Assembly: GCA_024637035.1 (NCBI GenBank)
Contig: JAGXFW010000023.1
Location: forward strand, 62,001 to 126,000
Length of the DNA: 64,000 nt
Reading direction: 5' to 3'
Source: Actinomycetes bacterium
Lineage (GTDB): Bacteria; Actinomycetota; Thermoleophilia; RBG-16-64-13
Positions 36,795 to 60,087 of the stretch are shown here, one piece after another; position 1 is the stretch's first letter; each line of letters begins with the position of its first letter. The notes under the pieces are model-generated. The model did no database searches. It saw only the letters and a list, made by a program, of their open reading frames with translations, and had not been told where the DNA came from. The translations under genes and the position numbers were made by a program.

Positions 36795-37757
36795 ATGGCC
36801 GTCATCTACTGCGGGCACTGCGGCTCCGACATGCCGGAAGACACCGCATTCTGCATGGCATGCGGGGCATCGACGAGCACACAGTCGGAGGGGTCGCAGC
36901 CCAGCGCTCAGCCCCCGCAGACCACTCAGCCGCAGCATCCCCCGCCACAGCCACAATACGGGCAACCTCCGCAGTATCCGCAGTACCCCCAGCAGTATCC
37001 GCAGCAGCCGCAGTATCCGCAGTACCCCCAGCAGTATCCGCAGCAGACCTACTACCAACAGCCCCAGTACCCCCCGCCGCAACCCACTCGTAGCGGCTCC
37101 GGGGCGGGCAGGGTGCTCGCGTACATCGCGCTCGCATGTGTGGGGATCGCCGCCGTCGGCGCCCTCGTCGTCATGGGGTTCACTCTGTTTAAGCCTGAGA
37201 GCCCTAACGGAGGCGGCGGGATCGTCCAGTCAGAACCCGACGGCCCCAGAGGCGGCGGTGTCGTCCAACCGCAACCCAATAGCCCCAGCACCGACGGAGG
37301 CCTCGTCCAGTGGCAGGCGACCTACGACCAGAACCGTGTGCTCGACGAGTTCGGACCGCCGCAGGCCTTCGTCATCGGATACGGCGAGGACCATCTCGAT
37401 CAGGCCACCGGCGACGACCCCCTCGCGGTGCATCGCGTCGAGGCCTGGGACTACTGGGAGATGCAGACCCGGTTCGAGTTCAAGGACGGGATCGCCATCG
37501 GCACCCGAGAGCTCCCCCCCCTGGACGGCCCGGTCTACACCCCCGAGTACTCCCCGCTCGACTTCTCGCTCGGCATGAGCGCGGAGCAGGTCGCCGGGTT
37601 GATGCAGGTGGGGCCGAGTGCAACAGCCACCCTCGACCAGGAGCTCTTCCCCGGCATGTCGATCGACTCCTTCTTCGACGAACTTTGCGTAAGCTATCAG
37701 GAAGGCGGCCTTGTTGGTGTCGAGTCCTCGCTTCTGTCGCTGGAAGGGGGGTCGTGA
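36795..37757 (+). CDS. Zinc-ribbon membrane protein with PQY-rich linker
   Basis: YCGHCGSDMPEDTAFCMACG ribbon, PQYPQYPQQYPQQ repeats, TM VLAYIALACVGIAAVGALVVMGFTLF, extracytoplasmic domain. Confidence 0.8.
   Translation: MAVIYCGHCGSDMPEDTAFCMACGASTSTQSEGSQPSAQPPQTTQPQHPPPQPQYGQPPQYPQYPQQYPQQPQYPQYPQQYPQQTYYQQPQYPPPQPTRSGSGAGRVLAYIALACVGIAAVGALVVMGFTLFKPESPNGGGGIVQSEPDGPRGGGVVQPQPNSPSTDGGLVQWQATYDQNRVLDEFGPPQAFVIGYGEDHLDQATGDDPLAVHRVEAWDYWEMQTRFEFKDGIAIGTRELPPLDGPVYTPEYSPLDFSLGMSAEQVAGLMQVGPSATATLDQELFPGMSIDSFFDELCVSYQEGGLVGVESSLLSLEGGS
36969..37046 (+). repeat. Two tandem identical 39-bp repeats coding PQYPQYPQQYPQQ
   Basis: ccgcagtatccgcagtacccccagcagtatccgcagcag x2. Confidence 0.95.
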
Positions 37758-39691
37758 TGATGAAGGCGACCACCTTCCTCTCGCGCCTTGTCCGCCGGGT
37801 GCGCGCCCGGGCACGCTGCGAGCAGGGTTTCATCTTCACCACGATCATCATGACCCTCGGATATGGCGCCGTCGCCATCGGCTTGGTCGGAACCGGCGTC
37901 GCGGTTGCCAACAAGGTGACCATCAGCGACTCCACGTCTGAGATGCGCCAGCAGGCGCAGGACATCCAGCAGCGCCTCCAGGGCAACGACTCCAAAAAGG
38001 CCCAGGTGCTCAAGCAGAACGCGCAGATCATGCAGCAGGTCGCGGACCGCATGGACTCCGACGCCAACTGGGAACTGGGCACGTCCGTGACCGCCAACGT
38101 ACTCGACGCGGCCACCGCGGGTATCACCTCGAAGTCGAAGGCAGGCTACCAGGCGGTCAAGATCGTCTTGGACGGCTACACTGGCTGGCAACTCGGTCAA
38201 TCCGCCTTCGACGCGGTCGATCCGCCCAAGCCGGAGACGGACGCGGCCATCAAGATGCTGCAGGACGCGCCTCGCTATCAGCCCGGCGACACCACCGGCG
38301 CCACCCCGGACTTCGGATCCGGCTCCAACGTCGACGGCTACATCTTCCAGACGCAGGCGAACGTCATGAACGGCGAGGTCTCGGCACTCTACCCAGAGGC
38401 CGATCCGGCCCTCGTAGCGGACCTCGCGCAGCAACTGGTGATCGACTACACACTCGACCAGATGAGCGCCCCGGCCAGCGCGGCCACGCCCGCCGGCGGC
38501 AACCCGTTCTTGGCCGACGGCGTCCCCTCGATCACGTCCAAAGTCGATCCCAACCAAACGGTGGATGTGGCGATGGGACAGATCGCGCTCTCCCCCGAAG
38601 ACCAGGCGGCGCTCGGCAGCGGCGACAAGGACAGCGTCGTGGGGGTCTACTTCGGACAGAACGGGCTCGAGCCGGTCGTGGTGACGAACGATCCTGACTC
38701 AGGCCTGCAGACAGAGTTCACCCTGTTGCCCGAGCAACCCGTGGTCGATACCGGCGACGACTACAAGCCGGTCGTCGAAGACATGCCCACCTGGTGGGAC
38801 GGCACCGTCGACTCGTGTCCATACCTGTACGTCTGGGATGGCGAACGTTTCTCGCCGGTCAACGACATCATCTCTGTGAGCAGAGATCCCGAGCGCGAGT
38901 ACGACGACTTCATGATGTTCGCGGCAACGCCGAGCGCGGATGGCGCGTACGACGTCCGCATCGTGGAGGTGCGCAACGAGGAGTCCTGGCTCGACCTCGT
39001 GGGGTTCTCAGCCGTCGATGTGCCCGACGGGATGGGAGCGGCAGTCTCACCCGGCGGCGACGCGTACTCCATCGGGGCCGTCCGGACCCCGGACCCCATC
39101 TCCGCCATCTCGCCCATGGCCCTGGATCGGGCCGACCGAGCAATCGGCCTGATCGACGGACGGGGCCTGCGCCTGTACGACGGGCCCGGACCGGAGGCCG
39201 TCTTCTCCGGCGTCGGCGGGGATGCCGTTCTGCTCATCACGATGGACGGCTTCGAGAACAACGGTGCGCCCGGCGCGCCGTTGTTCAAGCGACCCGCGGT
39301 CCACGTCGAGGCGTGGAACGGTTCGGCATGGATCGCCGCGGGCACCGTCCATCCACGCGAGCGGACCGACACCACGGCGCTCGATGTGTCCCGGTTCGTG
39401 GTCGACCAACAGGTGCGCGTAAGGCTGTCCAGCGACTCGTGCAACGTCGGGACGTTCCAGCTACTCGACCGGCTCGCCCTGTCGACCGCCGACCGTTCTC
39501 TCGTGCGTGTGACTCCACTCGCCATAGACAGCGCCTTGCTCGGGACAACCGACGTGAGGAGCACGTTGGCCGCCGCCGATGGCGTGCGGATACACACCGT
39601 GCCGGGGGACTCGATCGACATCCTGTTCGCCGCAGGCGACCCGGACTGCTTCATCGTCGAGAGCCGAGGGTGGTACCGGCCGCTGGAGTAG
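37757..39691 (+). CDS. Membrane/surface protein of unknown function
   Basis: Overlaps upstream stop; N-terminal TM TTIIMTLGYGAVAIGLVGTGVAVA; C-terminal WWDGTVDSCPYLYVWDGERFSPVNDI-type domain. Confidence 0.7.
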   Translation: MMKATTFLSRLVRRVRARARCEQGFIFTTIIMTLGYGAVAIGLVGTGVAVANKVTISDSTSEMRQQAQDIQQRLQGNDSKKAQVLKQNAQIMQQVADRMDSDANWELGTSVTANVLDAATAGITSKSKAGYQAVKIVLDGYTGWQLGQSAFDAVDPPKPETDAAIKMLQDAPRYQPGDTTGATPDFGSGSNVDGYIFQTQANVMNGEVSALYPEADPALVADLAQQLVIDYTLDQMSAPASAATPAGGNPFLADGVPSITSKVDPNQTVDVAMGQIALSPEDQAALGSGDKDSVVGVYFGQNGLEPVVVTNDPDSGLQTEFTLLPEQPVVDTGDDYKPVVEDMPTWWDGTVDSCPYLYVWDGERFSPVNDIISVSRDPEREYDDFMMFAATPSADGAYDVRIVEVRNEESWLDLVGFSAVDVPDGMGAAVSPGGDAYSIGAVRTPDPISAISPMALDRADRAIGLIDGRGLRLYDGPGPEAVFSGVGGDAVLLITMDGFENNGAPGAPLFKRPAVHVEAWNGSAWIAAGTVHPRERTDTTALDVSRFVVDQQVRVRLSSDSCNVGTFQLLDRLALSTADRSLVRVTPLAIDSALLGTTDVRSTLAAADGVRIHTVPGDSIDILFAAGDPDCFIVESRGWYRPLE

Positions 39692-39733
39692 GGGTGCGCG
39701 GGGCGGCCCCCATCGGGCGCGAAGAGCGTCGGC

Positions 39734-40243
39734 CTACGCCTTCCGCGCCCACTTGAGTGCCTCGAACTGGCCGGAGACCTTCTCCATCAGCTCGGGGAGG
39801 CCGCCCTCGTACTCGAGTGACTTGAGTTTGGCGTCTGCGCCTGCGGGGTCGAGCTTCCCTGCATGCACATCCCTGATGACGCTCAAGTCCGCAGCCACCT
39901 TCGGCGGCAGGTCGCTCACTTCGTAGCCCTGCATATCGTAGCCCTTCCGCACGTCGTCGAGCGAGTGGGCCGCCTTGCCCGCCTGGGCGTAGGCGTCGAG
40001 GGTGTTGCCCTGGTTGTGGGAGGCGAGGACCTTGGTCTCGTAGGACGTGCCGTAGCCCTTGGGATCGAGCAAGGTCGATCTGCCGGCCTTGACCATGTCG
40101 GCGTTGGGCGTGATCTGCGTCTTCTCCCATCGACCGGTCTTCTCGTTGTATATCTTCGCCTGATCGACCATGTCGACGGGCGCCTCGGCGTGGTGAGCAT
40201 CGGTGGCGAGCTGCTGGCGGTCGCTGGCCCACTTCTTGGCACC
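39734..40243 (-). pseudogene. Orphan copy of the C-terminal cassette of the 1359-aa protein (5'-truncated)
   Basis: AKKWASDRQQLATDAHHAEAPVDMVDQAKIYNEKTGRWEKTQITPNADMV...GGLPELMEKVSGQFEALKWARKA, closely matching the 41201..45280 C-terminus. Confidence 0.75.
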
Positions 40244-40249
40244 TTCCAG

Positions 40250-41175
40250 TTGGCGGCTCTTCGCGCCGGACCTATGGCGGCTACGACGCCGGCCACGACG
40301 GCGAGGCCGAAGCACGCGGCCATCTGCAGCGCGGGGAAGACGAAAGTACCGAGGCCTTGGTCGGCAAGAGAGACGATCACCGCGTAGCCAAGAGCGGTAC
40401 CCAGGCCGATGCCGAGCACGGTGCCGAAGAGGGAGGTCATGATCGCTTCCCAGCGGACCATCCGCCGCACCTGCCGACGACCCATGCCGACCGCCCGCAG
40501 CAGACCGATCTCGCGCGTGCGCTCGAGGGTGGTGAGGGCCAGGGTATTGGCGATACCGACCACCGCTATCACCACGGCCAGTCCGAGAAGTCCCGAGAAC
40601 AAGGCCAGCATCTGATCGACCTGCCGGATCGCCACCTGGGCCAGTTCGGAGGCTGTGTTGACCGCGATGCTGGGGAAGTCGGCCAAGGCCGCTTCCGCCG
40701 CCGCCTTGCCTTCCTCCAGAGTCACCCCGGGAGCCAGTGTCACGAGTGCCACCGCGGTCTCCGTACTCGTGAAGTGCTCGTCGTAGGCGGCAACGCTGAT
40801 GATGTAGGTGCCGATGCTGTTGTCGTCGATGGTACCGACGACGGTCAGCGACCCCGTGCCCTCAGGGAAGTACACCGCGTCGATGGTGCCGGGGTCCACA
40901 GCCGACAGTCCCACGACCTCTCCGCCCACTTGGGCCTCGCCCCCGTAGATGGGCGAGATGCGCTCGACCTGGGGAAGGGCGGCGATATCGTCGAGCGCCG
41001 CGGCCGGCACGCCTGAGTACATGTTGCTGGAGCGGAGGCTCAGGTCGATCGCCGTGACGCCATCGACAGCATCGACCAGCGAGGCCTTGACAGAGGCCCC
41101 GAAGATCGACACGAAGGCCACCAACGCCACGCCTATCATCAACGCCGACGCGGTCGCGGCGGTGCGCCGGCACCG
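40250..41175 (-). pseudogene. FtsX/MacB-type ABC permease, C-terminal half only, abutted by cassette sequences on both sides
   Basis: RRTAATASALMIGVALVAFVSIFGASVKASL...TLERTREIGLLRAVGMGRRQVRRMVRWEAIMTSLFGTVLGIGLG...AIGPARRAA, then frame runs into cassette DNA. Confidence 0.75.
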
Positions 41176-41200
41176 CGGGAGCGGCCGCAGTCGGCTCGCC

Positions 41201-44200
41201 TTACGCCTTCCTCGCCCACTTGAGACCGGCGAACTGACCGGACACCTTCTCCATGAAGTCCGGCAGGCCGCCGTCGTACTTCAGGTCCTTGAGGCGCGCG
41301 TCGGCCTCGGCCGGGGTGAGTTTGCCGGTCTGCACGTCCTTGATCACCTGCATACCGGCGTTGATCTTGGGCGGCAGCTTTTTGATCTCGTATTGCTGGT
41401 CGCCGTACCCGCGACGCACTTTCTCCAGATAGGTCACCGCCTTGTCCGCCTGTTTGAACGCGTCGAGGTGGTTGCCCTCGTGATAGGCCGCGGCGATCTT
41501 TGTCTCCAATGTCTTCCCGTAGCCGTCGGGATCGAGCAGTGTGGACCTACCCAGCATGACCAGGTCGGCGTTGGGCGTGATCTGGGTCTTCTCCCACGTG
41601 CGAGTCTTCTTGTTGTAGATCATCGCCTGGTCGGCCATGTCCACGCTCGCCTCGCCGTGATGCATGTCCGTGGCGATCTGTTGACGGTCGACCGCCCATT
41701 TCTTCGCACCTGCCGGGTCGGTGGGCCCTCCGGTCTCGCCTGCGAAGATCTCGGCGCTCTTGCCCGCCCACTTCTCCTTCTTGAACTCGATGAAGCGCTC
41801 GCAGTTGGTCTCCGGGTCGACGGTGACGTAGCCGGCGCGGTAGTCGCGATCGATACCGTCGGGCGTGCCGAAGGTGCGCACGTCGATCTTCTTGCCCTCG
41901 GCTTCGGGCACGTTCTTCTTGATCCACTCCTTGAGCTTCTGGTCGTGGCTCTCGTAGATCTTCGCGCGCGTCTCGTGGAGCTTGGCCCAGGCTTCGGGGT
42001 GGTCCGCCTTGAGCTTACGCATGGCGTCAGGGTCGCCCATGATCCGCTCGGTGGTCGCTATGTCGACAGGCTTGCCGCCCTCGGTCGCGGCTGCGATCTC
42101 GGCGGCCATCGCGTCGGCACGCGACTTCGGCGTGCCCTTGCGCGTGTGGGGCGTGGGCTTCTCAGGCGTGTCGGGCTGCTTCTCCGGTGCATCCGGCGCC
42201 TTCTCAGGCGCGTCGGGCTGCTTCTTGGTGTCGGCATCCGGCTGCTTGGGCGCATCCGGAGCGTCGGCTGCTGCCGGCTTCTTCGCCGGGCCGTCGGATG
42301 CCCCTGGCTTCTTGGGAGTCGTGCCCGGATCGGGAGCACCGGGCTTGGCGGCGGGCTTGTTCGGCCCTGGGGCGCCACCCGTTCCACGCACGGCTTTCAG
42401 GTGCGCGATGTGGCTCAGGAACATGATGAGCCCCTCGTCGCGAAGCTGCTTGCCTACGTTCTTTATCGCGTTCGTCACCGACATTTTCGGGTCGTTGTAG
42501 AGCTCCTTGGCGAAGTAGTAGGCGATGAAGAGCGCCCAGCCGATCGCCTTCTTCTCGCCGGAGAGCTTGGAAAGCACGTCCGGGTCGGTCAGGAGTCCCT
42601 CGGCGGTCCCGCTGAACATACTGGTCTGCGAGACGAGCCAGTCCTCGAGCGATCCGCCGGCGAGCCACGTCTCCATGGCCGAGACAAGCATCGGCTTGAG
42701 CATGCTGATCGCGATCGAACCCACGACTCCCAGGTACGTGCCACTGGCCACTCCGAAGGCGATGTCCCCGCACCACGAGACCCAGTCCAGCGTGTCCTCG
42801 ATCTGCTGGATCCACCAGCCCGTGTCCATGTACTCGTGCGCCTTCTGGAGGAGCTGGGTCTCCGCGAAGTCCCCGATTTGCCTGCGCATCTTGTAGAGAC
42901 CCTCGGCGCCCATCGTCAGCGAGCGTTCGTTCACGAGCGTGTACAGGCGCTCCTGGTACTCGAACGGTACGTACTGGTAGATGGTGTCGCGGCAGCGGTC
43001 GAGCTCGATCTGCCACATGTCCGAGAACGGCTCGGTGTTCACACCAAGGAGCCGCAGCGGCACGAGTGCCGAGAACGCGGGCTCGTCGCGACCGGGCACG
43101 CTCGCGAGCAGGGTGGCAGGGAGCACTTCGCCGCCGGTCGGGAGCTTGCGCTCGATCGCCACGGCGAACGTGGCGCTCGGGACGTTGAGTACCCGCACTC
43201 CGGCGGGCGTGATCACGAGGCCGCCCGACTTGAGTCCCGCATACCCCGGCGTTCCCTCCTCGCCGCCGATCTCGAGGAGCGCTTGCTGTGCGAGTCCGAT
43301 GTCGGGTGCGATCTCCCCGGTCGCGGGGTCGCGCACGAACACCCGCAGGTCGATGTCGGCAGGTGTCGCGCTGCCGTCCGCTTTCAGGTTGAACGCGCCG
43401 GTCGACGGGTCGACGTTCGTCCGGTCGACGAAGAGTCCCTCCTGGGTGACGATCACCGTCACCTGCCGACGAAGCGGCTCGAAGCCGTCAGCGGTGGCCA
43501 CGACGACGAGTGTCGAAGAGGTCTCGGGGCGTGTCGGGTCCAGGGTGTCTCTCGCGTTTTCGGTGATGGTGAGCGTGGCGGTAGCCGGGCCGGTCGACAC
43601 GATGTCGGGCACGGCGATCAGGCGCGACCCTTCGCGCCACTCGGTCTCGAACTGCCAGGTGGCGCCGGCCGAGTTGGTGATCCACACGCTGACCTCGGTG
43701 CTGATGCCCGAATCGGCGGCAAGCGTCACGTGGTCCGGCTGTGCGTCAATCTCGGGCATGCGCGCCAGCTCGACGGTGACGACCTCGGTGATGACGCGCT
43801 CGCCGACCTGCGCGCTCACGCGTATAGTCGCGCTCTCGGGAGGCTGCACGATGCTCGTCGGGTCGGGCTGCGAGGCGACGACCGTCACTGCGCGGCCGCC
43901 CTCGTAGTCGGCGGGTGCGGAGATATCGAGCCACTCGGAGTCCTCGGCGAACGTGATCGTGGCCTGTGCAGCGGCGGGGTCGACCACCTCGGCATCCCCG
44001 CCAAGGAGTTCGACCGTCGCGACGAGCGTCAGCGAGTGCTCGCCATGTGTGCGCAGCGGCACGCCGGCCGGCTGGAGGCGCGTCACGATACGGCTCTCAC
44101 CGGCGGTCACCACCGGCACCGAAGCCGACGTGCCGCCGAGGGCGGCGGTGGCCTCGATGGTGATGGCCGCACCGAGCGCGATCGCGTCTGTCTGCCACAC

Positions 44201-45280
44201 GGAGGTCGTGAGTGTGCCGTACGCGGTCGGGGGCTGGGCGGCGACGCCGGCGGGGACGTGCAGGACGATCGCCGCCTCGGAGGCGGGCTCGTAGCTGCGG
44301 TTCGGCAGCACGCGGAACGCAGTCACCGTCAGCGTTGCCGGATTCGTCTCGCTCACGGTGAGCCTGGCCGAGGAGAGCTGGAGCACGTAGCCTACCGGCT
44401 GGTCCGGCGGCGGCTCCTCTTCGCCCTTTTTCGCACGAGCACTAGCCGCGGCTCCGGCCATCGCGATTGCCGCCGCAGCCACGGCGGCGACGCCGCCGAG
44501 GACGGTGCGCCACGGCGAGCTTTCGCCGCCGGTGTCGCCGGGAACGTCCGTGCCAGCGCTCGTCCCATCGAGCGGGTAGAACTTGAGCGATGCGAGGATC
44601 GACTCGACATCGGCGGTGATCGGGTCGAGCTGGTAGCCGTAGTGCTCACCCGACGTTGTGCCCGGATCCTCCGACCAGCTCACGGCGGAGAGCGCGGTGA
44701 CGAGGATCCCGCTGTCGCTTCCTGCAGGGATCCAGTAGATCCAGGTGTTGCCGTACTCCGCTTCCGTGTGCCTATCCACGTACTCGAGTCGGACGGTCGA
44801 ACGGTTCACGTACGCTTCGAGGCCCCCGAGCGTTGTCTTCTGCGCTCCCTCCCAGACGCGCAAGGAGGGGTCGTCCACGGTTCGGAACAGGTAGTCCTCA
44901 CCCGTGTCCACCTCCGATGAGCGTGCGGCGAAGTCCTCGAACGAGGTGAACGGTGTGCAGTACTTGTCGTCCGAGTACCCGCGTCCAACGACCCTAGCTC
45001 TGACCTCGCCCGGCCCGCGCCAATCGAGGCCGTTGTGGCCGTCGGCGCCAAACAGCTGAACTGCGCTGAAGTAGGGATCGTTGAGGAGGTTCTCGTCGAT
45101 GACGTACCAGCCGTCGGACTGGCTGTCACTCCCGTCCGCCTCTTTCGGCACCTTGTAATCGGAGACGAGCAGGCTCCCCCAGGCGAATGCGACCGCCGGA
45201 AGCAGCAGCAGCGACACAAGGGTGATGAGCATTCCCCCCGCTGCGATACGGCGGGCAAGGGTACGTCGGGAACTGCGCAT
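41201..45280 (-). CDS. Large (1359 aa) secreted/membrane modular protein with Ig-like-looking middle region, AP/KP/PD-rich linker and polymorphic-toxin-like C-terminal cassette
   Basis: Signal/TM ML..LVSLLLLPAVAFA; TM AVAAAAIAMAGAAASA; linker PDAPEKAPDAPEKQPDTPEKPTPHTRKG; C-terminal cassette ending GLKWARKA. Confidence 0.75.
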   Translation of the reverse strand: MRSSRRTLARRIAAGGMLITLVSLLLLPAVAFAWGSLLVSDYKVPKEADGSDSQSDGWYVIDENLLNDPYFSAVQLFGADGHNGLDWRGPGEVRARVVGRGYSDDKYCTPFTSFEDFAARSSEVDTGEDYLFRTVDDPSLRVWEGAQKTTLGGLEAYVNRSTVRLEYVDRHTEAEYGNTWIYWIPAGSDSGILVTALSAVSWSEDPGTTSGEHYGYQLDPITADVESILASLKFYPLDGTSAGTDVPGDTGGESSPWRTVLGGVAAVAAAAIAMAGAAASARAKKGEEEPPPDQPVGYVLQLSSARLTVSETNPATLTVTAFRVLPNRSYEPASEAAIVLHVPAGVAAQPPTAYGTLTTSVWQTDAIALGAAITIEATAALGGTSASVPVVTAGESRIVTRLQPAGVPLRTHGEHSLTLVATVELLGGDAEVVDPAAAQATITFAEDSEWLDISAPADYEGGRAVTVVASQPDPTSIVQPPESATIRVSAQVGERVITEVVTVELARMPEIDAQPDHVTLAADSGISTEVSVWITNSAGATWQFETEWREGSRLIAVPDIVSTGPATATLTITENARDTLDPTRPETSSTLVVVATADGFEPLRRQVTVIVTQEGLFVDRTNVDPSTGAFNLKADGSATPADIDLRVFVRDPATGEIAPDIGLAQQALLEIGGEEGTPGYAGLKSGGLVITPAGVRVLNVPSATFAVAIERKLPTGGEVLPATLLASVPGRDEPAFSALVPLRLLGVNTEPFSDMWQIELDRCRDTIYQYVPFEYQERLYTLVNERSLTMGAEGLYKMRRQIGDFAETQLLQKAHEYMDTGWWIQQIEDTLDWVSWCGDIAFGVASGTYLGVVGSIAISMLKPMLVSAMETWLAGGSLEDWLVSQTSMFSGTAEGLLTDPDVLSKLSGEKKAIGWALFIAYYFAKELYNDPKMSVTNAIKNVGKQLRDEGLIMFLSHIAHLKAVRGTGGAPGPNKPAAKPGAPDPGTTPKKPGASDGPAKKPAAADAPDAPKQPDADTKKQPDAPEKAPDAPEKQPDTPEKPTPHTRKGTPKSRADAMAAEIAAATEGGKPVDIATTERIMGDPDAMRKLKADHPEAWAKLHETRAKIYESHDQKLKEWIKKNVPEAEGKKIDVRTFGTPDGIDRDYRAGYVTVDPETNCERFIEFKKEKWAGKSAEIFAGETGGPTDPAGAKKWAVDRQQIATDMHHGEASVDMADQAMIYNKKTRTWEKTQITPNADLVMLGRSTLLDPDGYGKTLETKIAAAYHEGNHLDAFKQADKAVTYLEKVRRGYGDQQYEIKKLPPKINAGMQVIKDVQTGKLTPAEADARLKDLKYDGGLPDFMEKVSGQFAGLKWARKA

Positions 45281-45967
45281 CTAGGACCGCCTCCTCAGGG
45301 CCACTGAGGCCGTCTTGAGTGCCATGATGAGCGCCGAGCCTGTCGCGATCGCCATTGGCAGCAGCGAGAGGAGCGGTGCCCCGTCAGCGAGACCGCCAAC
45401 GAGTATCCCGCCGAGCGAGACCACCTGCACGAGCGCGGTAATGAGCGAGACGGCGCCGGTGATACCGCGCAGGGCGCCGCTCTTGGTGCCAGTGATCAAT
45501 GCGTCGAATCCGCCGATCGTGGTCTGCCGGGCCCCCACCCAGGACTCTCCCGAAGGGCTGCTCTGTTCCTGGGTGTTGTACCAGACCACAGCCGAACGCG
45601 CGGCGAAGTCGTCGTACGAAGTGAAGAGGAGATCCCCGGTAGGGAACAGATGCACGTTGGGGAGCTCTCCAGGCCGCACGGCCATGATGTAGACCTCGCC
45701 GTACGCCGTCCAGCCGAAGACGTTCTCGTCACTCGCCGAATACTGGATCCAGACTGGATCAGGCCCATCTTCTATGACCCTCCAACCGTCGGGAGCGTCA
45801 TACGAGATCGACTCGATGTCGGCAGCGAACGCGGCTCCCGGCGGGGCGAGGAGCGCCGTGAGGCAGACGAGAATCAACGCAGCGGCCAAGAGGCGGGCGA
45901 GAGCAGGGCGGTCGTCCCGGCCGCGATTCGCCAGAGGGCTGGACGCGAGCCGACGGCCCCGCATCAC
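45281..45967 (-). CDS. Secreted/membrane protein sharing N-terminal domain with the 1359-aa protein and C-terminal TM module with the next gene
   Basis: TSYDDFAARSAVVW...VGARQTTIGGFDALITGTKSGALRGITGAVSLITALVQVVSL...MALKTASVALRRRS. Confidence 0.65.
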   Translation of the reverse strand: MMRGRRLASSPLANRGRDDRPALARLLAAALILVCLTALLAPPGAAFAADIESISYDAPDGWRVIEDGPDPVWIQYSASDENVFGWTAYGEVYIMAVRPGELPNVHLFPTGDLLFTSYDDFAARSAVVWYNTQEQSSPSGESWVGARQTTIGGFDALITGTKSGALRGITGAVSLITALVQVVSLGGILVGGLADGAPLLSLLPMAIATGSALIMALKTASVALRRRS

Positions 45968-46623
45968 GACCCCTTCCTCAAGGCCACCGAGGCGGTCTTC
46001 ACGGCCATGACCAGCGCGGAAATCGCCGCGATCGCCATCGGTGCGAGAGCCAGAAGCGACGTGCCGTCAAGTAGCCCCCCGATGAGGGCCACTACGAGCG
46101 AAACCACCTGCACGAGCGCGGTGAGAAGCGAGACCACACCGGTGACACTCCGCAACGCGCCGCTCTTCGAGCCCGTGATCAGCGACAGGAGCGAAGTCAG
46201 CCCGCCCATCAGAAGCCGTGGGATCGCCGCCCCGAGCGCCCCCGACCCTCCGGAGACGGCCGCCACAAAGAGATCGAGCACGGCGGTGGCCGCCAACGAG
46301 AGGCCAGGCTTGCGAAGCGAGGCGCGCTGCACGGCCCGTCGGGCGGTGGGAAGAGCGGAAGTCGATAGGAACGAGCGGACGTCGAGCTGCTCTGCTCCGA
46401 CGATCGTCTTCCAGGGCAGCGCGGTCGCTACGCCGGCCACGCCCGCCGCCGCCTGGTAGCCTGCCGTAGCTTTGGAGATCGCCGCTCCGGCATCCGCGAC
46501 AAACGTGGACGCGGTCGTGGGAGCCCCCACCACCGCACGAGGCCGTCCGCAGTCCTCGCAGAAGGCCTCATCCACCCCCAGGGGCGCGCCGCATCCGATG
46601 CAGTACGAAGCCGTTCCGGCCAT
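45964..46623 (-). CDS. Zinc-ribbon membrane protein
   Basis: MAGTASYCIGCGAPLGVDEAFCEDCGRPR ribbon plus LITGSKSGALRSVTGVVSLLTALVQVVSL...MAVKTASVALRKGS. Confidence 0.7.
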   Translation of the reverse strand: MAGTASYCIGCGAPLGVDEAFCEDCGRPRAVVGAPTTASTFVADAGAAISKATAGYQAAAGVAGVATALPWKTIVGAEQLDVRSFLSTSALPTARRAVQRASLRKPGLSLAATAVLDLFVAAVSGGSGALGAAIPRLLMGGLTSLLSLITGSKSGALRSVTGVVSLLTALVQVVSLVVALIGGLLDGTSLLALAPMAIAAISALVMAVKTASVALRKGS

Positions 46624-51834: not shown

Positions 51835-52360
51835 CAACACCCCTTTCCCCTTTTTCAGTATTCCCTTCCCGGCGGCGCCGGGTCGGCCGTGATTCATTCA
51901 CTACCGCGCGAATGTACCCAAGAATGTCGGCCAGCGCAATACTAACGATGAATCAAGGATCAACCAGCGTACGGGGAGTGACCGCAACGCGTCTCTCCGG
52001 CGCTCCCCGACCCGAAAGGTCGGTCATTATCGCACAGGCGGGCGCTTCCTTATCGTGGTCCACTGGAGCTACCGCCCCGCTCTCCAACTCCACGACGCGG
52101 GTGTGGGTCGGCCAAAGGAATCGCGCGGAGCCCCAGGGGGTCGCGCGGGAGCCCGGAGGGACGCGGGGACGCACCGTACGTACGGCGTGGACGCACGTCG
52201 GCGCCGGCGTGCGAACCTACGCGGGAGCCCAGCGGCGACCTATGTCGAAGACCGCACGCTCGGCATCCGGCACAGCCGAGCGCCATACGGCGACGAACGA
52301 AGGAGGACGGGCTGAACCGGTCCTTCTGTCCGACCCCCTTGGTACACTTACATCACATCA

Positions 52361-52490
52361 AGAGCGACCCCGAAACGGGGTCCGGCAACCGGGCAGGAGA
52401 CGCCAACGGTGCCTTGAGGGCGAAGGAAGCCTTCGATGTGCGGGACACGGAAGAACGTCCTGAACTACGAGTCTCCACCGCGACGCGGCT
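52361..52490 (+). ncRNA. Candidate structured RNA of unknown class
   Basis: -10-like TACACT at 52343-52348; hairpins GACCCCG-AAA-CGGGGTC, CGAAGG-AAG-CCTTCG, CGGGAC-N10-GTCCTG, CCGC-GAC-GCGG; long-range GGAGAC (52396-52401) with GTCTCC (52471-52476). Confidence 0.5.
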
Positions 52491-52556: not shown

Positions 52557-53105
52557 ATGGCCGCACCACGACGCAAGCACCCCGGCTGGAACACCATCGA
52601 GGAGAGCCCCCAGGGCAGGCAGTTCATCGCCCTCTGCCAGTCGGTCCTCGGGGAAGGGCCCATCCGCTACCGTCCGCTCGAACGCCTGAAGGACTCGAGC
52701 CACGTCTTCAAGCTCTCCGGCCCTCGGGCCACAGGCATGCTCGTGGAGGCGAGGGGCCGCGAAGTCGGCAGTGAGTGGCGGACCCAGTGGGGCTTCCTCC
52801 TAGAGGTGCACGGGAGCCCGACCACCTTCCAGGTCGACCTGGTGACCTTCCGCTGGGACCCTTGGCTCCACGCCGAGCGGACCGGGGATGCGACCGTGAG
52901 AGACAGCACCCCGGCCAAACGCCGCCGGGTGTCGGACGCCCTTCGGGCCACGGGCGGCTCTCGCAAGGACCGGATGGTCGTGCGCATCCTCCCCTGGGAC
53001 CGGCCTCCGCGCACCGTCGCCGGTGTCGCCCGGGCGACCATCGATGAGATCCGTCTCAAGCACGGGTTCGCCGTAATCGAGTCGTTCGTAGGGGAGGGGT
53101 CCTGA
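52557..53105 (+). CDS. Conserved-looking hypothetical protein, 182 aa
   Basis: AAGGAGG RBS before ATG; MAAPRRKHPGWNTIEESPQGRQFIALCQSVLGEGPIRYRPLERL. Confidence 0.65.
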   Translation: MAAPRRKHPGWNTIEESPQGRQFIALCQSVLGEGPIRYRPLERLKDSSHVFKLSGPRATGMLVEARGREVGSEWRTQWGFLLEVHGSPTTFQVDLVTFRWDPWLHAERTGDATVRDSTPAKRRRVSDALRATGGSRKDRMVVRILPWDRPPRTVAGVARATIDEIRLKHGFAVIESFVGEGS

Positions 53106-53736: not shown

Positions 53737-54084
53737 CTACTGGAGGTCTACGAGAAGCTTCTTGTAGTCAGCTTCGTAGCGGCGAATCTCGTCCGGCTTG
53801 AACCGGCCACCCTCGTATCGAGCCTCCACACTCATTCCATGGAGCTTCTTGAGCAAGGATGCGGCATACGGCTTTCCCTGCTTGCGCACGGCGTTTATGC
53901 GCGGCATGTGTCCGACAATGTCGAGATCTTGCCGGGCAAGGAACGCTTCGGCCCAGTGGCTAGCAGCATAGTACAGGGTGGTGACGGCCCACTCACTGTA
54001 TGTGGTTCTGGGACCATCAAGCACGTCGCGATAGACCTTCTCGTTGCGTGCCGCCTGAGCAGCGTGCTTCAACTCATCCATCAA
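53737..54084 (-). CDS. HEPN-like domain protein
   Basis: 115 aa all-helical-looking AAQAARNEKVYRDVL...TYSEWAVTTLYYAASHWAEAFLA...GHMPRINAVRK...RYEADYKKLL. Confidence 0.5.
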   Translation of the reverse strand: MMDELKHAAQAARNEKVYRDVLDGPRTTYSEWAVTTLYYAASHWAEAFLARQDLDIVGHMPRINAVRKQGKPYAASLLKKLHGMSVEARYEGGRFKPDEIRRYEADYKKLLVDLQ

Positions 54085-54506
54085 ACGAGCCGCACTAGGC
54101 CACTCAGATCATGCGCGCAGCGGTCTTGGAACCAGACGTCGACATCGATGGACACGTCTGCGGCGTCGGCCATTGCGGTCCACATGAGTTCGTATGCCTT
54201 GTCTTCCATGTCGAGATCAACCGCCTGCGCCACGACGAGGACACGCACGGTCTCGGGTTCTCGGGGCGCGCTCACGTAGATCTCGGCCTCAGGCCAGACA
54301 GAGTGAAGCTGCCGGGCGTAATCGTCCGCGACGTTCCGGGGGGAGTAGCGCATTTGTGTTTCGAGTGTGGTCATTTCAGCCCAGCCAGTGTTCGGGAAGT
54401 TGTAGACTCGGCCCCCATCTGCTTCATCGGCCCGGAAGACGGTCTCCTGAACTACAGTATCATTCGCCACGCTCATCGGGATTCCGGCTTCGAGTGTCTC
54501 AGGCAT
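54081..54506 (-). CDS. Hypothetical protein, possible degenerate nucleotidyltransferase-like partner of the HEPN-like gene
   Basis: ATGA overlaps with both neighbours; VRVLVVAQAVDLDMEDKAYELMWTAMADAADVSIDVDVWFQD. Confidence 0.45.
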   Translation of the reverse strand: MPETLEAGIPMSVANDTVVQETVFRADEADGGRVYNFPNTGWAEMTTLETQMRYSPRNVADDYARQLHSVWPEAEIYVSAPREPETVRVLVVAQAVDLDMEDKAYELMWTAMADAADVSIDVDVWFQDRCAHDLSGLVRLV

Positions 54507-54858
54507 TCCACTGCTCCCGGTCTCGGGTCTCCTTCATGCGCCCGAGCAGATCGTAGACGCTGTCCAGAAGGCTCTCCGGCATGGTCACGGCAGCGACGAA
54601 CTTGGGAGTGATGCCTTCCTCGGCCATCCTCTTTGCCACCGCCTCGGACCCTGGCTCCTTGCGGATTGGGAGTCGGACTTGAGCGAATATCAGGGTGAAC
54701 TCTCCGCCAACGCGGTTCGCGAGCACGTGGTTGGAATACAGGGAGGCCGGGATGTCGGCCTCGTCCATGTTCAAGATCTTCACCTCGTACCTCTCGGGAA
54801 CCGCATTGGCCTTCGCCGCAGCCACGGGCTTCTTGCGGCCTTTCGTCTCTGCACTCAT
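54499..54858 (-). CDS. DUF3467-like protein
   Basis: DIPASLYSNHVLANRVGGEFTLIFAQVRLP...TPKFVAAVTMPESLLDSVYDLLGRM. Confidence 0.55.
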   Translation of the reverse strand: MSAETKGRKKPVAAAKANAVPERYEVKILNMDEADIPASLYSNHVLANRVGGEFTLIFAQVRLPIRKEPGSEAVAKRMAEEGITPKFVAAVTMPESLLDSVYDLLGRMKETRDREQWNA

Positions 54859-55016
54859 GCTGTCCCTCCGTTGATATGGCGGTGGTGGGTGGCTACTCGA
54901 AGGCAGTCATCATCGCGTTGGCCTCAAGTATAGCGGCAGTCGACTCCGTTTCTGAATCGGCGGGCCTCCGAACTATCGTCGGTGGGGTCTACCGCTTCGG
55001 TGGGGTCCGACTCTCT

Positions 55017-55208
55017 CTACTCCTCCGACAGTGGCAATTCTAGAGCCTGCCCTCGGTCCTGCTTGGCTCGCGGCGACGCCTTGAACGTCACGTTGCCGAA
55101 CCGTGAAGGGTAGTCGATAGCCGCGCCCCCCAGTAGGTCCGCCACCGTGAGAATCTGCAGGCGCGGGTGCTTGCTGTGCCAGCCCGGCGACTCGTTCTCC
55201 GGGGCCTT
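55017..55208 (-). pseudogene. C-terminal remnant of a large site-specific DNA methyltransferase
   Basis: Manual frame reading KAPENESPGWHSKHPRLQILTVADLLGGAAIDYPSRFGNVTFKASPRAKQDRGQALELPLSEE*, resembling the PRLQILTIEELLxGxxIDYP tail of such methylases; no start, in-frame TGA just upstream. Confidence 0.6.
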
Positions 55209-55390
55209 TCATCTATCAAGGTGGGCCGTGGTTGAGGCGCTTCGAGCGTCGAGCTAGCGTTCTTTGGCTTCACTCGCAGCGAAGCGCTGCCAGGTGGAAG
55301 CCACGGTTGCTACCTCGCGCCGTCGATCCCAGTTCCCGGCGCTGTTTGCGTTCCCGAAGCGCTCCAGGCGCACCCCAGCGCGCCACAAGG

Positions 55391-56518
55391 CTACAGACCG
55401 CTCTTGTCTCGGTTGCAAGGGATACAGAGCATCTGGCAGTTCTCGGCGATGGTCTTGCCGCCTTTGGACCACGGGTTGATGTGGTCGCCCTCCATGTCCT
55501 CAAGCTCGAAGATACGTTGGCCGTCGTCATTGCCGGGGGTACGGCAGCGGGTGCCGTTGGCGCACTTGTGATGCTGGCGCTCGTATGCCGCACGCTTTTC
55601 GCGATCGTCAAACTGGCGGATGTTGAGGCGGCGCTCTTCGCCAGTGAGCAGGAAAGTGTAGATGCCGCTGCGCCTGGTCACGTCCGGGTCCTGCATCAGT
55701 TCAGCCGTGCGCCGCTCCAACTCGTTGGTGTCTAGTGTCTCGTCCTTGAACCGGTCGTACAGCGGCCCCCACTCGACACCCTTCATCTCCTTGCGGTAGG
55801 TCGTGAACGTCTGCTGCACCCACCAGATGACGTTCTGGAAGTGGGTCCACAGCTCGTTCGCATTCTGGTCGTGCTGGTGGTCCGACATGTACTGGTCGAT
55901 CTTCCCGCCCGACCGCCACTTCAGCGCTTTCTCGAGCAGCTCTTGACGGATCGGGGAGCCAGTGACGTACTTGCTGGCCAGACCATACGCTGGGCCGTGG
56001 GTCTTGCTGAAGATTGACTTGGCATGCGTTAGCCACGGTCCGGTGTAGACGGCGTTGCGAAGCTCCTGGTCCGTCAGCTCTACCCCTGCGATGTTGACCG
56101 TACGAAACCAGTCGAGCTTGTCCCGGTCGTTGCCCTCGCAGACGTAGACCATCAGCTCATAGTCGAGAAACTGGTCCTTCTGAGGCTGCGTGAGGTTGTG
56201 GAAGGCCATCGGGTGGCCGTCGATGTTGATCGAGAAGTCACCGGCGACGTATTGGCAGAAGCTGATTGTGCGCTGCTGGCCGTCGAGAACCTCGAAGGTG
56301 CCGTCCTCGTTGACCGCCCAGTACATGACATTCAGCGGGAAGTCCTTGCGGATTGTGCCCAGCACAGCGGCCCTCTTCTCCGCATCGTACACGAACTCAC
56401 GCTGATACTTCGGGCGGATGTTCAGCTTGCCGCCGTAGCCGACGACGCCGTCCTCGTCGTTGTCGCGGTAGTCCTCCGCCACATCGCGGACCGTGACCTT
56501 CTTCAGATCGATCTTCAC
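55391..56518 (-). CDS. DUF262 (GmrS/ParB-like) protein with C-terminal HNH nuclease domain
   Basis: IRPKYQREFVYDAEKRAAVLGTIRKDFPLNVMYW...EVLDGQQRTISFCQY; HNH-type CANGTRCRTPG...DMEGDHINPWSKGGKTIAENCQMLCIPCNRDKSG. Confidence 0.88.
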   Translation of the reverse strand: MKIDLKKVTVRDVAEDYRDNDEDGVVGYGGKLNIRPKYQREFVYDAEKRAAVLGTIRKDFPLNVMYWAVNEDGTFEVLDGQQRTISFCQYVAGDFSINIDGHPMAFHNLTQPQKDQFLDYELMVYVCEGNDRDKLDWFRTVNIAGVELTDQELRNAVYTGPWLTHAKSIFSKTHGPAYGLASKYVTGSPIRQELLEKALKWRSGGKIDQYMSDHQHDQNANELWTHFQNVIWWVQQTFTTYRKEMKGVEWGPLYDRFKDETLDTNELERRTAELMQDPDVTRRSGIYTFLLTGEERRLNIRQFDDREKRAAYERQHHKCANGTRCRTPGNDDGQRIFELEDMEGDHINPWSKGGKTIAENCQMLCIPCNRDKSGL

Positions 56519-57630
56519 GATGCGGCCCCGATCCTCTTGATAACGACACGTTGGTAGACACCCATGTGCTTGCCATTCCCCACAGGAACGAAGAACTTGC
56601 CCGTTCCGCCGACCACCTTGCCGCCGGAGCTCATGTAGTCCTCCTTGGCGGCGTACCGAGACATCGGCTCAGCAAGCTCGAGGCTTTGCCCGATGATCTG
56701 GAACTGGTCAGGATTGTACTTGTCCAGGAACGTGATCGGCACACCCATCTCCCCGTCGTAGTCCATGGGGATTTCGGCAACTCTGCTGACTTCGATCGCC
56801 GGGTAGTTGGTGTACGTAGGGTACTCCTCCGGCGTGTACCGCTTGAAGAGGGTCATGGGCTCATGACGCTTCGTGGTGTCCAGGTTGGTGAACCAGTAGG
56901 CGCGGCCCATCGAGAAGAACTTGACGCCGTCTACGACCTTCTTGCGTGACTCGGTCTTGATCTCATAGTCGCCGGGAACCCGGAACCACTTCGTACCACC
57001 GTTCTCGTAGCCAAACCAGAGATTGTCAGCCATGATCTGCTCGAAGATTTCTCGGTAGGTGATGAAGTTCTGGTCACCAATGACCAGGAAGTGTTTCTTA
57101 TGCGTCGCGAGCAACGGAATGAACTCGCGTATGAGGCTCCACGGGGGGTTGGTCACGACGATGTCGGCTTCGTCGAGCAGCTCCACGCACTCCACGCTGC
57201 GGAAATCGCCACCGCCCTTCAGCGGCGTCATCGCGTTGGCGTCGTTGCGAAGCAGGTACTCAACGTCAGCCAAATCGATTGCGCCATCCTCGTTCAGGTC
57301 GGGCACCTCGCTAATGACGACCTTGTAGGGCTCACGCGGCGGCGGGGTGTCCCGGAGCCCGGCGGTCTCGAATAACGGCAGCTGCTCGCCACTGATCGGC
57401 GAGCCTGCGTAGCAGGTTGTGATGAGCCGCCTCAGGCCAAGGTGGTTGAAGTTCATCGCGAAGTACTTGAAGAAGTTGGACTCATACGGATCGTCGCAGT
57501 TGCAGAACACGACCTTGCCATTGAACTGGTCGCGGTAGTGGCGCAGCTCGGCCTCGATGTCCGTTAGCTGTGTGTACCACTCGTCGAGGGCCGCACGATT
57601 CCGCGCGCTCAGCGTCTCATTACCCGCCAT
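56515..57630 (-). CDS. EcoRI-family adenine-specific DNA methyltransferase
   Basis: VVFCNCDDPYESNFFKYFAMNFNHLGLRRLITTCY; ADIVVTNPPWSLIREFIPLLATHKKHFLVIGDQNFITY. Confidence 0.87.
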   Translation of the reverse strand: MAGNETLSARNRAALDEWYTQLTDIEAELRHYRDQFNGKVVFCNCDDPYESNFFKYFAMNFNHLGLRRLITTCYAGSPISGEQLPLFETAGLRDTPPPREPYKVVISEVPDLNEDGAIDLADVEYLLRNDANAMTPLKGGGDFRSVECVELLDEADIVVTNPPWSLIREFIPLLATHKKHFLVIGDQNFITYREIFEQIMADNLWFGYENGGTKWFRVPGDYEIKTESRKKVVDGVKFFSMGRAYWFTNLDTTKRHEPMTLFKRYTPEEYPTYTNYPAIEVSRVAEIPMDYDGEMGVPITFLDKYNPDQFQIIGQSLELAEPMSRYAAKEDYMSSGGKVVGGTGKFFVPVGNGKHMGVYQRVVIKRIGAAS

Positions 57631-57871
57631 CTGTGTACCGACCTTCCTCGTAATCCAGTTGAAGCAAGTGTATCAAGGGGTTCTGACAACTCGAGGCCAT
57701 CACTCGTAGCGAAGACCCACGTTACCGCCCAGCCCGGCCGTGCATCGAACCGAAGTCGGCCGGGGGGCCCTCCGATGTGGTGCGTGACGGCACCGACAGT
57801 TCTTCTGCAGTCTGTCGAACTCCAGACTGCAGCCACGTTTACCCTCGACAACTACCGGGGCCCTCAGCCGG

Positions 57872-58306
57872 TTAAGCAGGCCGGAGGTAGACGACTTTCC
57901 CTCCGTACTTCGCGATCACCTCGGCCAGATGCTGGTCAGATGTGAGAAGAGTGAACCCATTCTGGAGTGCGACCTCGGCCGTCAGCACATCCTGCGTGTT
58001 GTTGGGCTTCGACTTGTTGCGAGTGTTGAGCTCTTTGCGGAGTGTGTGAAATGATGCACCGTCGCCTAGCCTGCCTTGACCCAGTCGTGAAACGCCCAAC
58101 ACAAACGATTCGGTCGGGACAAGCCGTGGTCTGACTTCCGCGAACTTGAGGAGTAGCCGGGCTCGGCGTTCGGCGTCCTTGGTTGCGTTTATCTCGTCGA
58201 TCTGGACGTGAGTAGCCAGATACTCCCCATCCGAGGGCAGGTCGCCGAGGTCGATAGCGCCATCCACCAGCTTGTTGAAGATGCAGGTATCCAAGACATA
58301 CGCCAT
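57872..58306 (-). CDS. PIN-domain protein (putative toxin)
   Basis: MAYVLDTCIFNKLVDG...NNTQDVLTAEVALQNGFTLLTSDQHLAEVIAKYGGKVVYL. Confidence 0.75.
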   Translation of the reverse strand: MAYVLDTCIFNKLVDGAIDLGDLPSDGEYLATHVQIDEINATKDAERRARLLLKFAEVRPRLVPTESFVLGVSRLGQGRLGDGASFHTLRKELNTRNKSKPNNTQDVLTAEVALQNGFTLLTSDQHLAEVIAKYGGKVVYLRPA

Positions 58307-58337
58307 TGAGAGCGCCTTCCGTCCGCAGCCCTGGTCG

Positions 58338-58439
58338 CTACTGCCCGAACCCCTGGCTCTCAAGCAACGTGAAGAGTTCCTCAAGCTCCCGGTCCACTTC
58401 TTCAGTCGATTGTCTGCGTTCGCTGGCCGCCGGGACCAC
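58338..58439 (-). CDS. Small ORF upstream of the PIN gene, candidate antitoxin (start uncertain, may extend upstream)
   Basis: Manual translation (V)VPAASERRQSTEEVDRELEELFTLLESQGFGQ*; the same frame is open upstream (WKPEKRRNVNAWRNGNTDLLCRVGLYGSNI). Confidence 0.35.
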   Translation of the reverse strand: MVPAASERRQSTEEVDRELEELFTLLESQGFGQ

Positions 58440-58540
58440 GATGTTAGAACCATATAGGCCGACGCGGCAGAGCAAGTCCGTATTCCCGTTGCGCCACGCA
58501 TTGACGTTTCGTCGCTTCTCAGGCTTCCACCGGCAATTCC

Positions 58541-59173
58541 CTACCGCTTGAAGGTCGCGCTCATATCCGGCAGACCCGTGGAGGTCACCACGACTCGGTC
58601 GTCACCCACTTCGATGATAACCATGTCGCGGTCCGATGCGCTAATCATGTCGGCGGTTATCGTGAGGGTGAACCGTATCTCCGTAGAGTTCCGACCACCA
58701 GGGTACACGTACACGTCGACAGCGGAGTTGCGCTTGTAAGGGCCGATAGTTGTGTTATCACCACCGAATTCGAGGTCCGGATACCACGACCCCAGGCCCT
58801 TTGTCCAAACCTCCAGCAGGTCGTTCCGGGATTTCACTGTGTCATCGTAGACGGCCAGCCTAAGTGCCACCGATCCGGCGGTAGTGGTCGTCGGCGCTAC
58901 CGTGGTCGTCGTGGTCGGCGCCACCGTGGTCGTTGTGGGCGCGGCTGTAGTGGTCGTCGTAGTCGGCGCTACCGTGGTCGTCGTCGCGGCTATGGTTGCT
59001 GGTACAGAGACGGTGGCGACGGTAGTCGGTGCTGCCTCACCGCCGCATCCGACTGCTCCGAACAGGACGAGCGCAAACAGGATGCCCAGCAGCAGAAGCC
59101 ATCTACTCCCCCAAGCGGCCCCCCTGTGGCCCGCCTCGGTCTTGCCAAGACGGTCGGTCAGTCCCTCAACCAT
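58541..59173 (-). CDS. Thr-rich lipoprotein/membrane protein
   Basis: Hydrophobic LLLLGILFALVLFGAVGCGGEA lipobox-like, then APTTTTV repeats and a C-terminal beta-rich-looking domain; start assigned at MVEGLTDRL. Confidence 0.6.
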   Translation of the reverse strand: MVEGLTDRLGKTEAGHRGAAWGSRWLLLLGILFALVLFGAVGCGGEAAPTTVATVSVPATIAATTTTVAPTTTTTTAAPTTTTVAPTTTTTVAPTTTTAGSVALRLAVYDDTVKSRNDLLEVWTKGLGSWYPDLEFGGDNTTIGPYKRNSAVDVYVYPGGRNSTEIRFTLTITADMISASDRDMVIIEVGDDRVVVTSTGLPDMSATFKR

Positions 59174-59338
59174 GACCCTTCCTCCAATCCAGAGCCCCGA
59201 CGCGCGGCTCACTACGGCCTCCCAGCCAAGCACGCCCCCAAAGGTAATAGGTTGTGCACAGCTACGGAAGTCAACCTTGTCATCCTACAACTTTGGGTGG
59301 ACGGAACGAAACACGGTCGGAGACGCGTGGAGGTTCCT

Positions 59339-60027: not shown

Positions 60028-60087
60028 GTCACACCGTCGTCACACCTTTGGAGCCCTTCGTCACACTTCTGCACGTCCTTGTCACAC
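60028..60087. repeat. Iteron-like array: four GTCACAC boxes at 60028, 60039, 60060, 60081 (spacing 11, 21, 21)
   Basis: cgttTGTCACACcgtcGTCACACctttggagcccttcGTCACACttctgcacgtccttGTCACACccc. Confidence 0.7.

What the first reader, a model, noticed from the sequence alone, without database searches (positions are those of the whole stretch)
36795..46623. Convergent modular cluster: two zinc-ribbon membrane proteins flank surface proteins with reshuffled domains
Plus-strand genes (zinc ribbon plus PQY linker plus TM; 644-aa surface protein) converge on minus-strand genes (zinc ribbon plus TM module; 228-aa protein; 1359-aa protein). The 228-aa protein shares its N-terminal domain with the 1359-aa one (TSYDDFAARS..TTIGGFDA vs TSFEDFAARS..TTLGGLEA) and its C-terminal TM module with the zinc-ribbon protein (LITGxKSGALR..TG.VSL.TALVQVVSL...MA.KTASVALR). 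This domain mixing, with a toxin-like C-terminal cassette, suggests an undescribed surface or contact-dependent system assembled by local recombination.
Basis: partly seen in the sequence, partly recalled or inferred. Interest (0 to 1): 0.72.

Follow-up and report, generated by a model that had tools for sequence, protein, structure and literature searches.

The report
Membrane protein pair with swappable ectodomains
An unnamed two-gene module (a zinc-ribbon membrane protein followed by a 1,350-residue membrane protein) was broken here by an inserted second copy, which explains the mixed domains; related genomes show that the module keeps its C-terminus and changes its outer N-terminal domain, the opposite of a toxin-swapping system.

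Summary
The sequence observation holds. The interpretation mostly does not. Sister genome G001 has, at the same position, one zinc-ribbon gene (ZnR) and one intact 1350-aa gene (SurfA). In the window, a 5.26-kb block (C-half of a second ZnR, complete SurfB, fragment of an FtsX permease) replaces about 3.1 kb of the middle of SurfA. ZnR immediately upstream of Surf recurs in all 12 other loci that reach the 5' side. The plus-strand pair does not belong to the module. The "toxin cassette" is the conserved end of the protein, has no immunity-gene partner and matches no known family. What varies is the N-terminal ectodomain: at least four discrete types (66-88% identical within a type, 26-44% between) on a backbone mostly 50-75% identical between types; AU tests reject a shared history (p 0.0002, 0.0005). 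Two distant relatives are 54% identical over 577 aa but have unrelated ectodomains. Best reading: an undescribed envelope receptor-like module, inferred and not shown. No Pfam, NCBIfam, PADLOC, PDB-sequence or fold match was found.

The parts
45964..46623 (-). ZnR-A: zinc ribbon (CxxC..CxxC) plus 3-4 hydrophobic segments, 219 aa from the likely start; overlaps the next gene by a few bases
   Evidence: (only sub-threshold zinc-ribbon hits); 85% nt identical to the G001 orthologue over 46536-45499; Ka/Ks 0.19
45499..45967 (-). N-terminal remnant of SurfA (signal peptide and part of the type-IV ectodomain), first part of the 228-aa chimera
   Evidence: orthologous to G001 SurfA N-terminus, breakpoint at 45499/45498 (sequence); Ka/Ks 0.80
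45281..45498 (-). C-terminal half of a second zinc-ribbon protein (ZnR-B, TM hairpin part), fused in frame to the SurfA remnant
   Evidence: 73.5% nt identical to ZnR-A; 71-75% aa to ZnRs of L013, L014, L017, L025; stop codon directly abuts the SurfB start
41201..45280 (-). SurfB, complete 1359-aa protein: signal peptide 1-33, N-domain about 30-240, weak TM about 261-279, beta-rich Ig-like region 291-745, helical region 746-985, Pro-rich linker 986-1065, C-domain 1066-1359 (domain borders approximate)
   Evidence: homologues
44561..45193 (-). SurfB N-terminal ectodomain (type I; the exchanged part)
   Evidence: 66-73% to L017/L022/L025 but 33-40% to L013, L014, L020, L024 and G001; AU tests
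41201..42085 (-). SurfB C-domain ('cassette'), the conserved end of the protein
   Evidence: 48-72% identity across the family; AF2 pLDDT 85, pTM 0.61; no fold match
40244..41200 (-). Truncated FtsX-type ABC permease (C-terminal part only), tail of the inserted block
   Evidence: PF02687 E 5e-20; no match at E<=1e-30 elsewhere in the own genome or G001
39734..40243 (-). Orphan C-terminal 169 codons of SurfA; out of frame with the FtsX fragment, no start codon of its own in the SurfA-derived part
   Evidence: 92.6% nt to G001 SurfA 3' end
36795..37757 (+). Zinc ribbon, PQY-rich linker, TM, C-terminal domain (320 aa); accessory, not part of the conserved module
   Evidence: PF13240 just above cut-off; one weak relative among 199 genomes of the class; absent at the G001 locus
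37757..39691 (+). 644-aa protein with one N-terminal TM; lineage-restricted
   Evidence: no homologue in 80 relatives; only E about 5e-4 partial matches in the phylum

Best explanation
The minus-strand part is a two-gene envelope module, ZnR followed by Surf, that suffered one insertion. Shown: a 5255-bp block (45498-40244) carrying the 3' half of a foreign ZnR-B, complete SurfB and a fragment of an ABC permease replaced the middle 3.1 kb of the resident SurfA. This left a SurfA-N/ZnR-B-C fusion (the 228-aa ORF) and an orphan SurfA C-terminus, while keeping a contiguous ZnR-A / fusion / SurfB gene order. In effect SurfA was replaced by SurfB with another ectodomain type. Inferred: Surf works like a membrane receptor. 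Its N-terminal domain is exported by a signal peptide and recognises something outside, a TM follows, and the conserved helical region and C-domain act together with the zinc-ribbon membrane partner, most likely on the cytoplasmic side. Recombination exchanges the ectodomain while the output end stays constant. Ligand, output and the catalytic nature of the C-domain are unknown.
For: Insertion: 85% (ZnR-A plus SurfA-N) and 92.6% (SurfA-C) nt identity to G001 up to sharp breakpoints, against 73% for SurfB; junction sequences. Module: ZnR directly upstream of Surf in all 12 other loci that reach that side, mostly with a 4-bp overlap. Ectodomain exchange: identity matrices; N tree and backbone tree conflict, AU p 0.0002 and 0.0005; L029/L030 54% over 577 aa but no N-domain homology; G005 N-domain matches the others only marginally. 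Constraint on the constant end: C-domain Ka/Ks 0.10-0.17 in three close pairs. Topology: signal peptides in all complete members; TM with 3-5 K/R on its C side against 1-3 before it in the main family; clearer TM in L029/L030.
Against: The TM at 261-279 is marginal and later helical stretches score similarly, so the side of the C-domain is uncertain. The Ig-like look of 291-745 would normally suggest an extracellular location. No fold or family match identifies a sensor or an output domain. Receptor function is an analogy drawn from the variable-ectodomain, constant-C-terminus pattern. The insertion itself could in principle be an assembly error, though the flanks are unique sequence and no reads were available.
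Confidence: 0.5

Rival explanations
1. Surf is a structural surface protein or adhesin: everything after the signal peptide is outside, the conserved C-domain is a wall-binding or assembly domain, and the N-domain diversifies under predation or phage pressure.
For: Ig-like look of 291-745; weak TM; long Pro-rich linker before the C-domain; ectodomain types.
Against: The predicted TM plus a basic stop-transfer-like stretch recurs in most members and is clearer in the distant relatives; no known wall-anchor domain in Pfam or NCBIfam.
Confidence: 0.27
2. Contact-dependent or polymorphic toxin with a C-terminal toxin cassette; the orphan cassette is a displaced toxin module like the Rhs-CT orphans.
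For: Long exported protein, Pro-rich linker and a distinct C-terminal domain; an orphan C-terminal copy lies downstream, which superficially resembles Rhs orphans (PMC3967940).
Against: The C-domain is the same in all members and the N-domain varies; no conserved gene downstream, and in G001 the next gene is convergent and 47 bp away; the orphan is explained by the insertion at its ancestral position and carries no immunity gene; no toxin family or fold match.
Confidence: 0.08
3. The fragments are kept as silent donors: SurfA-N and orphan SurfA-C can recombine with SurfB to switch ectodomain or C-terminus.
For: Both remnants stay open; the orphan C has Ka/Ks 0.27 and as few unique changes (4) as the intact copy (5); the exchange signal exists in the family.
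Against: The SurfA-N remnant shows Ka/Ks 0.80, consistent with decay; SurfA N and C remnants share only 38% and 66% identity with SurfB, poor substrates for homologous exchange; remnants were seen in one genome only.
Confidence: 0.07
4. The exchange signal is not recombination but two speeds of evolution: the N-domain diverges very fast after duplication (paralogy).
For: Paralogues exist (SurfC on contig C8); the N-domain has higher Ka than the C-domain in close pairs.
Against: For similar backbone distance the N-domain distance is bimodal (for example L022-L025 N 72%, region 241-745 66%; L013-L025 N 38%, region 241-745 65%), and topologies conflict.
Confidence: 0.15

Closest known systems
Polymorphic toxin systems (CDI, Rhs, T7SS toxins; PMC3482391)
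   Same: Long exported proteins with a distinct C-terminal domain; domain replacement by recombination; an orphan C-terminal fragment downstream.
   Different: Here the C-terminal domain is constant and the N-terminal domain is replaced; no immunity gene; no toxin domain recognised.
Rhs orphan toxin modules (PMC3967940)
   Same: A C-terminal fragment without its own start lies downstream of a full-length gene.
   Different: Here the fragment is the 3' end of the resident gene that the insertion interrupted, at its ancestral position, with no immunity gene beside it.
Single-pass bacterial receptors with variable sensor domains (chemoreceptors, sensor kinases, RsgI-type anti-sigma factors; from general knowledge)
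   Same: Exchangeable N-terminal ectodomain, TM, constant C-terminal part.
   Different: No known signalling output domain; the C-domain is unrelated to any family tested.
Zinc-ribbon membrane proteins (Zn_Ribbon_1 PF13240 / DZR PF12773)
   Same: N-terminal CxxC..CxxC ribbon followed by TM segments.
   Different: The TM module recurs only as partner of Surf; in the window ZnR-A scores below the Pfam cut-offs.

Membership tests
Polymorphic toxin / contact-dependent inhibition system | Variable C-terminal toxin domain on a conserved N-terminal delivery part | tested here: not met
   C-domain 48-72% to SurfB in all members, N-domain 21-73% in discrete types
[quoted passage not shown]
   No downstream gene conserved over the loci; in G001 the next gene is a convergent EamA transporter 47 bp away
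Polymorphic toxin / contact-dependent inhibition system | C-terminal domain belongs to a known toxin family or fold | tested here: not met
   Pfam, NCBIfam, PADLOC, PDB sequences, Foldseek PDB and BFVD all negative; an undescribed toxin is not excluded
Polymorphic toxin / contact-dependent inhibition system | Standalone cassette reservoirs near the main gene | tested here: inconclusive
   One orphan C-terminus exists but is explained as the 3' end of interrupted SurfA
Polymorphic toxin / contact-dependent inhibition system | Toxic to the producing cell without immunity | not testable with these tools
   needs expression experiment
Nucleotidyltransferase (Pol beta-like) superfamily for the C-domain | Sequence-profile similarity to NTP_transf_2 and its GS..DxD motif | tested here: not met
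   Motif-like G84-T..D90-x-D92..E111 on predicted strands, but hhalign against 21 related-genome NTP_transf_2 proteins gives probability about 0.1%
Zinc-ribbon protein (PF13240/PF12773) | Four zinc-ligand cysteines CxxC..CxxC and score above cut-off | tested here: inconclusive
   Cysteines present in all ZnR rows that reach the N-terminus (G015 partner seen only by tblastn); ZnR-A scores 13.7 bits against cut-off 25, the plus-strand protein 25.7
Variable-ectodomain membrane receptor | Signal peptide, exchangeable N-domain, TM, constant C-terminal part | tested here: met
   the TM is weak in some members
Variable-ectodomain membrane receptor | C-terminal part in the cytoplasm with a signalling output | not testable with these tools
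   needs topology fusions and a phenotype

The most novel reading that the evidence does not exclude
ZnR-Surf is a previously unrecognised bacterial recognition system in which discrete ectodomain alleles are exchanged onto a constant membrane/output chassis: the mirror image of polymorphic toxins, perhaps used for kin or phage recognition, with the zinc-ribbon membrane protein as obligate partner.
Probability: 0.2. Interest if true: 0.75.

Novelty: new variant of a known kind. Interest (0 to 1): 0.5.

Why it matters
If right, it adds an undescribed two-gene envelope module, found patchily in uncultured Actinomycetota, whose ectodomain is replaced by recombination while the rest stays constant. 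That pattern points to recognition of something variable outside the cell and gives direct tests (what the ectodomain types bind; which side the C-domain is on). It also shows how a single insertion can look like designed domain shuffling, and that a conserved C-terminal domain after a Pro-rich linker is not by itself a toxin cassette.

Tried and rejected
Toxin cassette: rejected (constant C-domain, no immunity gene, no family match). Nucleotidyltransferase reading of the C-domain: motif only, hhalign negative. PD-(D/E)xK nuclease reading: the lysine of E-x-K is not conserved in alignment A2. PsbP/Mog1-like fold of the N-domain: suspected from sequence pattern, no Pfam or PDB-sequence support. 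Foldseek with the C-domain and the low-confidence helical-region model (pLDDT 65): no usable match. Spread by phages or plasmids: no match in plasmid, phage or viral-contig collections. Functional link with the neighbouring branched-chain amino-acid ABC operon or EamA genes: not conserved in other loci. Intact source of the FtsX fragment: no match at E<=1e-30 in own genome or G001. Literature searches found no description of such a module.

Full report
OBSERVATION. All ORFs of the finding exist at the stated coordinates. The similarities it lists are real: the C-part of the 228-aa protein and the C-part of the zinc-ribbon protein are a 223-bp direct repeat at 73.5%, and the N-parts of the 228-aa and 1359-aa proteins are homologous (38% aa).

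WHAT HAPPENED AT THE LOCUS. The window is G000:C6:62001-126000. The sister genome G001 (same genus) has the same flanks, EamA transporters on one side and a branched-chain amino-acid-type ABC operon on the other, but between them only one zinc-ribbon gene and one intact 1350-aa gene, SurfA. Nucleotide alignment: window 46536-45499 matches G001 at 85% (ZnR plus the SurfA N-terminus), window 40243-39732 matches at 92.6% (SurfA 3' end), while the complete 1359-aa gene (SurfB) matches SurfA at only 73%. So a 5255-bp block, 45498-40244, stands where G001 has 3.1 kb of SurfA. It contains the C-half of a second zinc-ribbon gene (ZnR-B), SurfB starting directly at the ZnR-B stop codon, and part of an FtsX permease. 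The junctions show little homology. The FtsX fragment has no other match at E<=1e-30 in the own genome or in G001, so the block is probably foreign. The 228-aa protein is thus a fusion created by the insertion, and the downstream cassette is the stranded 3' end of SurfA. Neighbouring genes differ from G001 with Ks 0.25-0.44 and the SurfA remnants with Ks 0.19-0.21, so the insertion is no older than the split of the two species. The N-remnant has Ka/Ks 0.80 (intact N-domains in other pairs 0.16-0.25), compatible with relaxed constraint; the orphan C has 0.27 and is not clearly decayed.

THE MODULE. Relatives of SurfB were found in 15 loci of genome contigs (Coriobacteriia-like and other Actinomycetota MAGs, one Thermoleophilia MAG, one MAG labelled Propionibacterium), in 4 of 41 near genomes, as a paralogue on contig C8 of the own genome, and more distantly in two genomes of another family, G153 and G213. 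It is rare and patchy (4 of 399 genomes of the class). In all 12 other loci that reach the 5' side, a ZnR gene lies immediately upstream, mostly with a 4-bp overlap. In the distant relatives the gene after Surf carries two or three zinc ribbons, although it is otherwise a different protein. A third, unnamed membrane protein lies nearby in 5 loci. No gene downstream is conserved. Neither the plus-strand 320-aa nor the 644-aa protein belongs to the module: both are missing from the G001 locus and practically without relatives.

WHAT VARIES AND WHAT DOES NOT. Per-domain identity: the C-domain is 48-72% identical to SurfB in every member. The N-terminal domain falls into discrete types: I (SurfB, L017, L022, L025: 66-80%), II (L013, L014: 70%), III (L020, L024: 88%), IV (G001 SurfA and the window remnant: 74%). 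Between types it is 26-44%, although the region 241-745 is 50-74% identical between the same proteins. For equal backbone distance the N-distance is bimodal: L022-L025 N 72%, region 241-745 66%; L013-L025 N 38%, region 241-745 65%. The backbone rejects the type-I group (delta lnL 43.8, p-AU 0.0002) and the N-domain rejects the backbone group SurfB+L013+L014 (delta lnL 31.1, p-AU 0.0005). Independently, L029 and L030 are 54% identical over 577 aa after the N-domain but their N-domains show no detectable relationship, and G005 has an N-domain with only marginal similarity to the others. The ZnR partner does not follow the N-type in its identity pattern. This is replacement of an exported N-terminal domain on a constant chassis, opposite in direction to polymorphic toxins, where the C-terminus varies and an immunity gene follows (PMC3482391).

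HOW IT MAY WORK. The members with complete N-termini start with a signal peptide. An Ala-rich segment near residue 261 with more K/R after it than before is the best TM candidate, but it is weak; it is clearer in L029/L030. If it is a TM, the beta-rich region, helical region and C-domain are cytoplasmic and the N-domain is outside: a receptor-like layout with the zinc-ribbon membrane protein as partner. This is inference. The rival, a wholly extracellular adhesin, is not excluded. The C-domain model is confident locally (pLDDT 85, pTM 0.61) but has no fold match in PDB or BFVD. A nucleotidyltransferase-like motif was noticed and failed the profile test.

KNOWN OR NEW. No part of Surf reaches a Pfam or NCBIfam cut-off or a PADLOC family, none matches a solved structure by sequence, and the paper searches found nothing. 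The family looks undescribed; the kind of thing (membrane protein with exchangeable ectodomain) is known. The insertion is a single-genome accident; the ectodomain exchange is the general finding.

LIMITS. MAG contigs may contain errors; G000 junctions were not checked on reads. The G005 N-domain is separated from the rest by a frameshift that may be a sequencing error. Some homologues contain masked stretches. Only 13 full-length or nearly full-length members support the exchange analysis, and no other genome with an inserted copy was seen. The AU tests compare groups named from the other half of the protein, so they are not circular, but long branches are present in the N tree.

Noticed in passing
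window 53737-63736: Likely integrative element: tyrosine integrase with Arm-DNA-binding domain (62477-63736, -), HTH_17 excisionase-like protein (61348-61572), and an EcoRI-type adenine methyltransferase (56515-57630, E 8e-125) next to a GmrSD_N-HNH endonuclease (55391-56518), an unusual restriction-modification pairing.
   Followed up: partly
window 54858-53737: Three small genes between the restriction pair and the next region (119, 141, 115 aa) without Pfam match.
   Followed up: no
window 52350-52465: SAM-I/IV riboswitch on the + strand, upstream of an ORF at 52557-53105 without Pfam match.
   Followed up: no
L013:3609-4301, L017:3482-4222, L020:3260-3766, L025:3510-4133, L026:8861-9898: Conserved membrane protein of about 200 aa (..EWTYDVPLLTSRFMLWDF..) beside the ZnR-Surf pair in 5 loci; no Pfam family in the three copies scanned. 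Possible third partner.
   Followed up: partly
L010:8716-12754: In G005 the signal-peptide/ectodomain part and the TM-to-C-domain part lie in different frames, overlapping near PWRT; real split, frameshift or sequencing error.
   Followed up: partly
window 38128-38156 and 46449-46477: 29-nt inverted repeat (83%) between the 644-aa gene (SKSKAGYQA) and ZnR-A (SKATAGYQA); may be a shared short motif or chance.
   Followed up: no
L029:1-3758, L030:1-3876: Distant relatives pair the Surf-like protein with a 438-469-aa protein that has 2-3 C-terminal zinc ribbons and an unknown N-terminal domain.
   Followed up: partly
L020/L024: Region 241-745 is only 68% identical while the N-domain is 88% and the C-domain 95%, suggesting further recombination inside the beta-rich region.
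   Followed up: no
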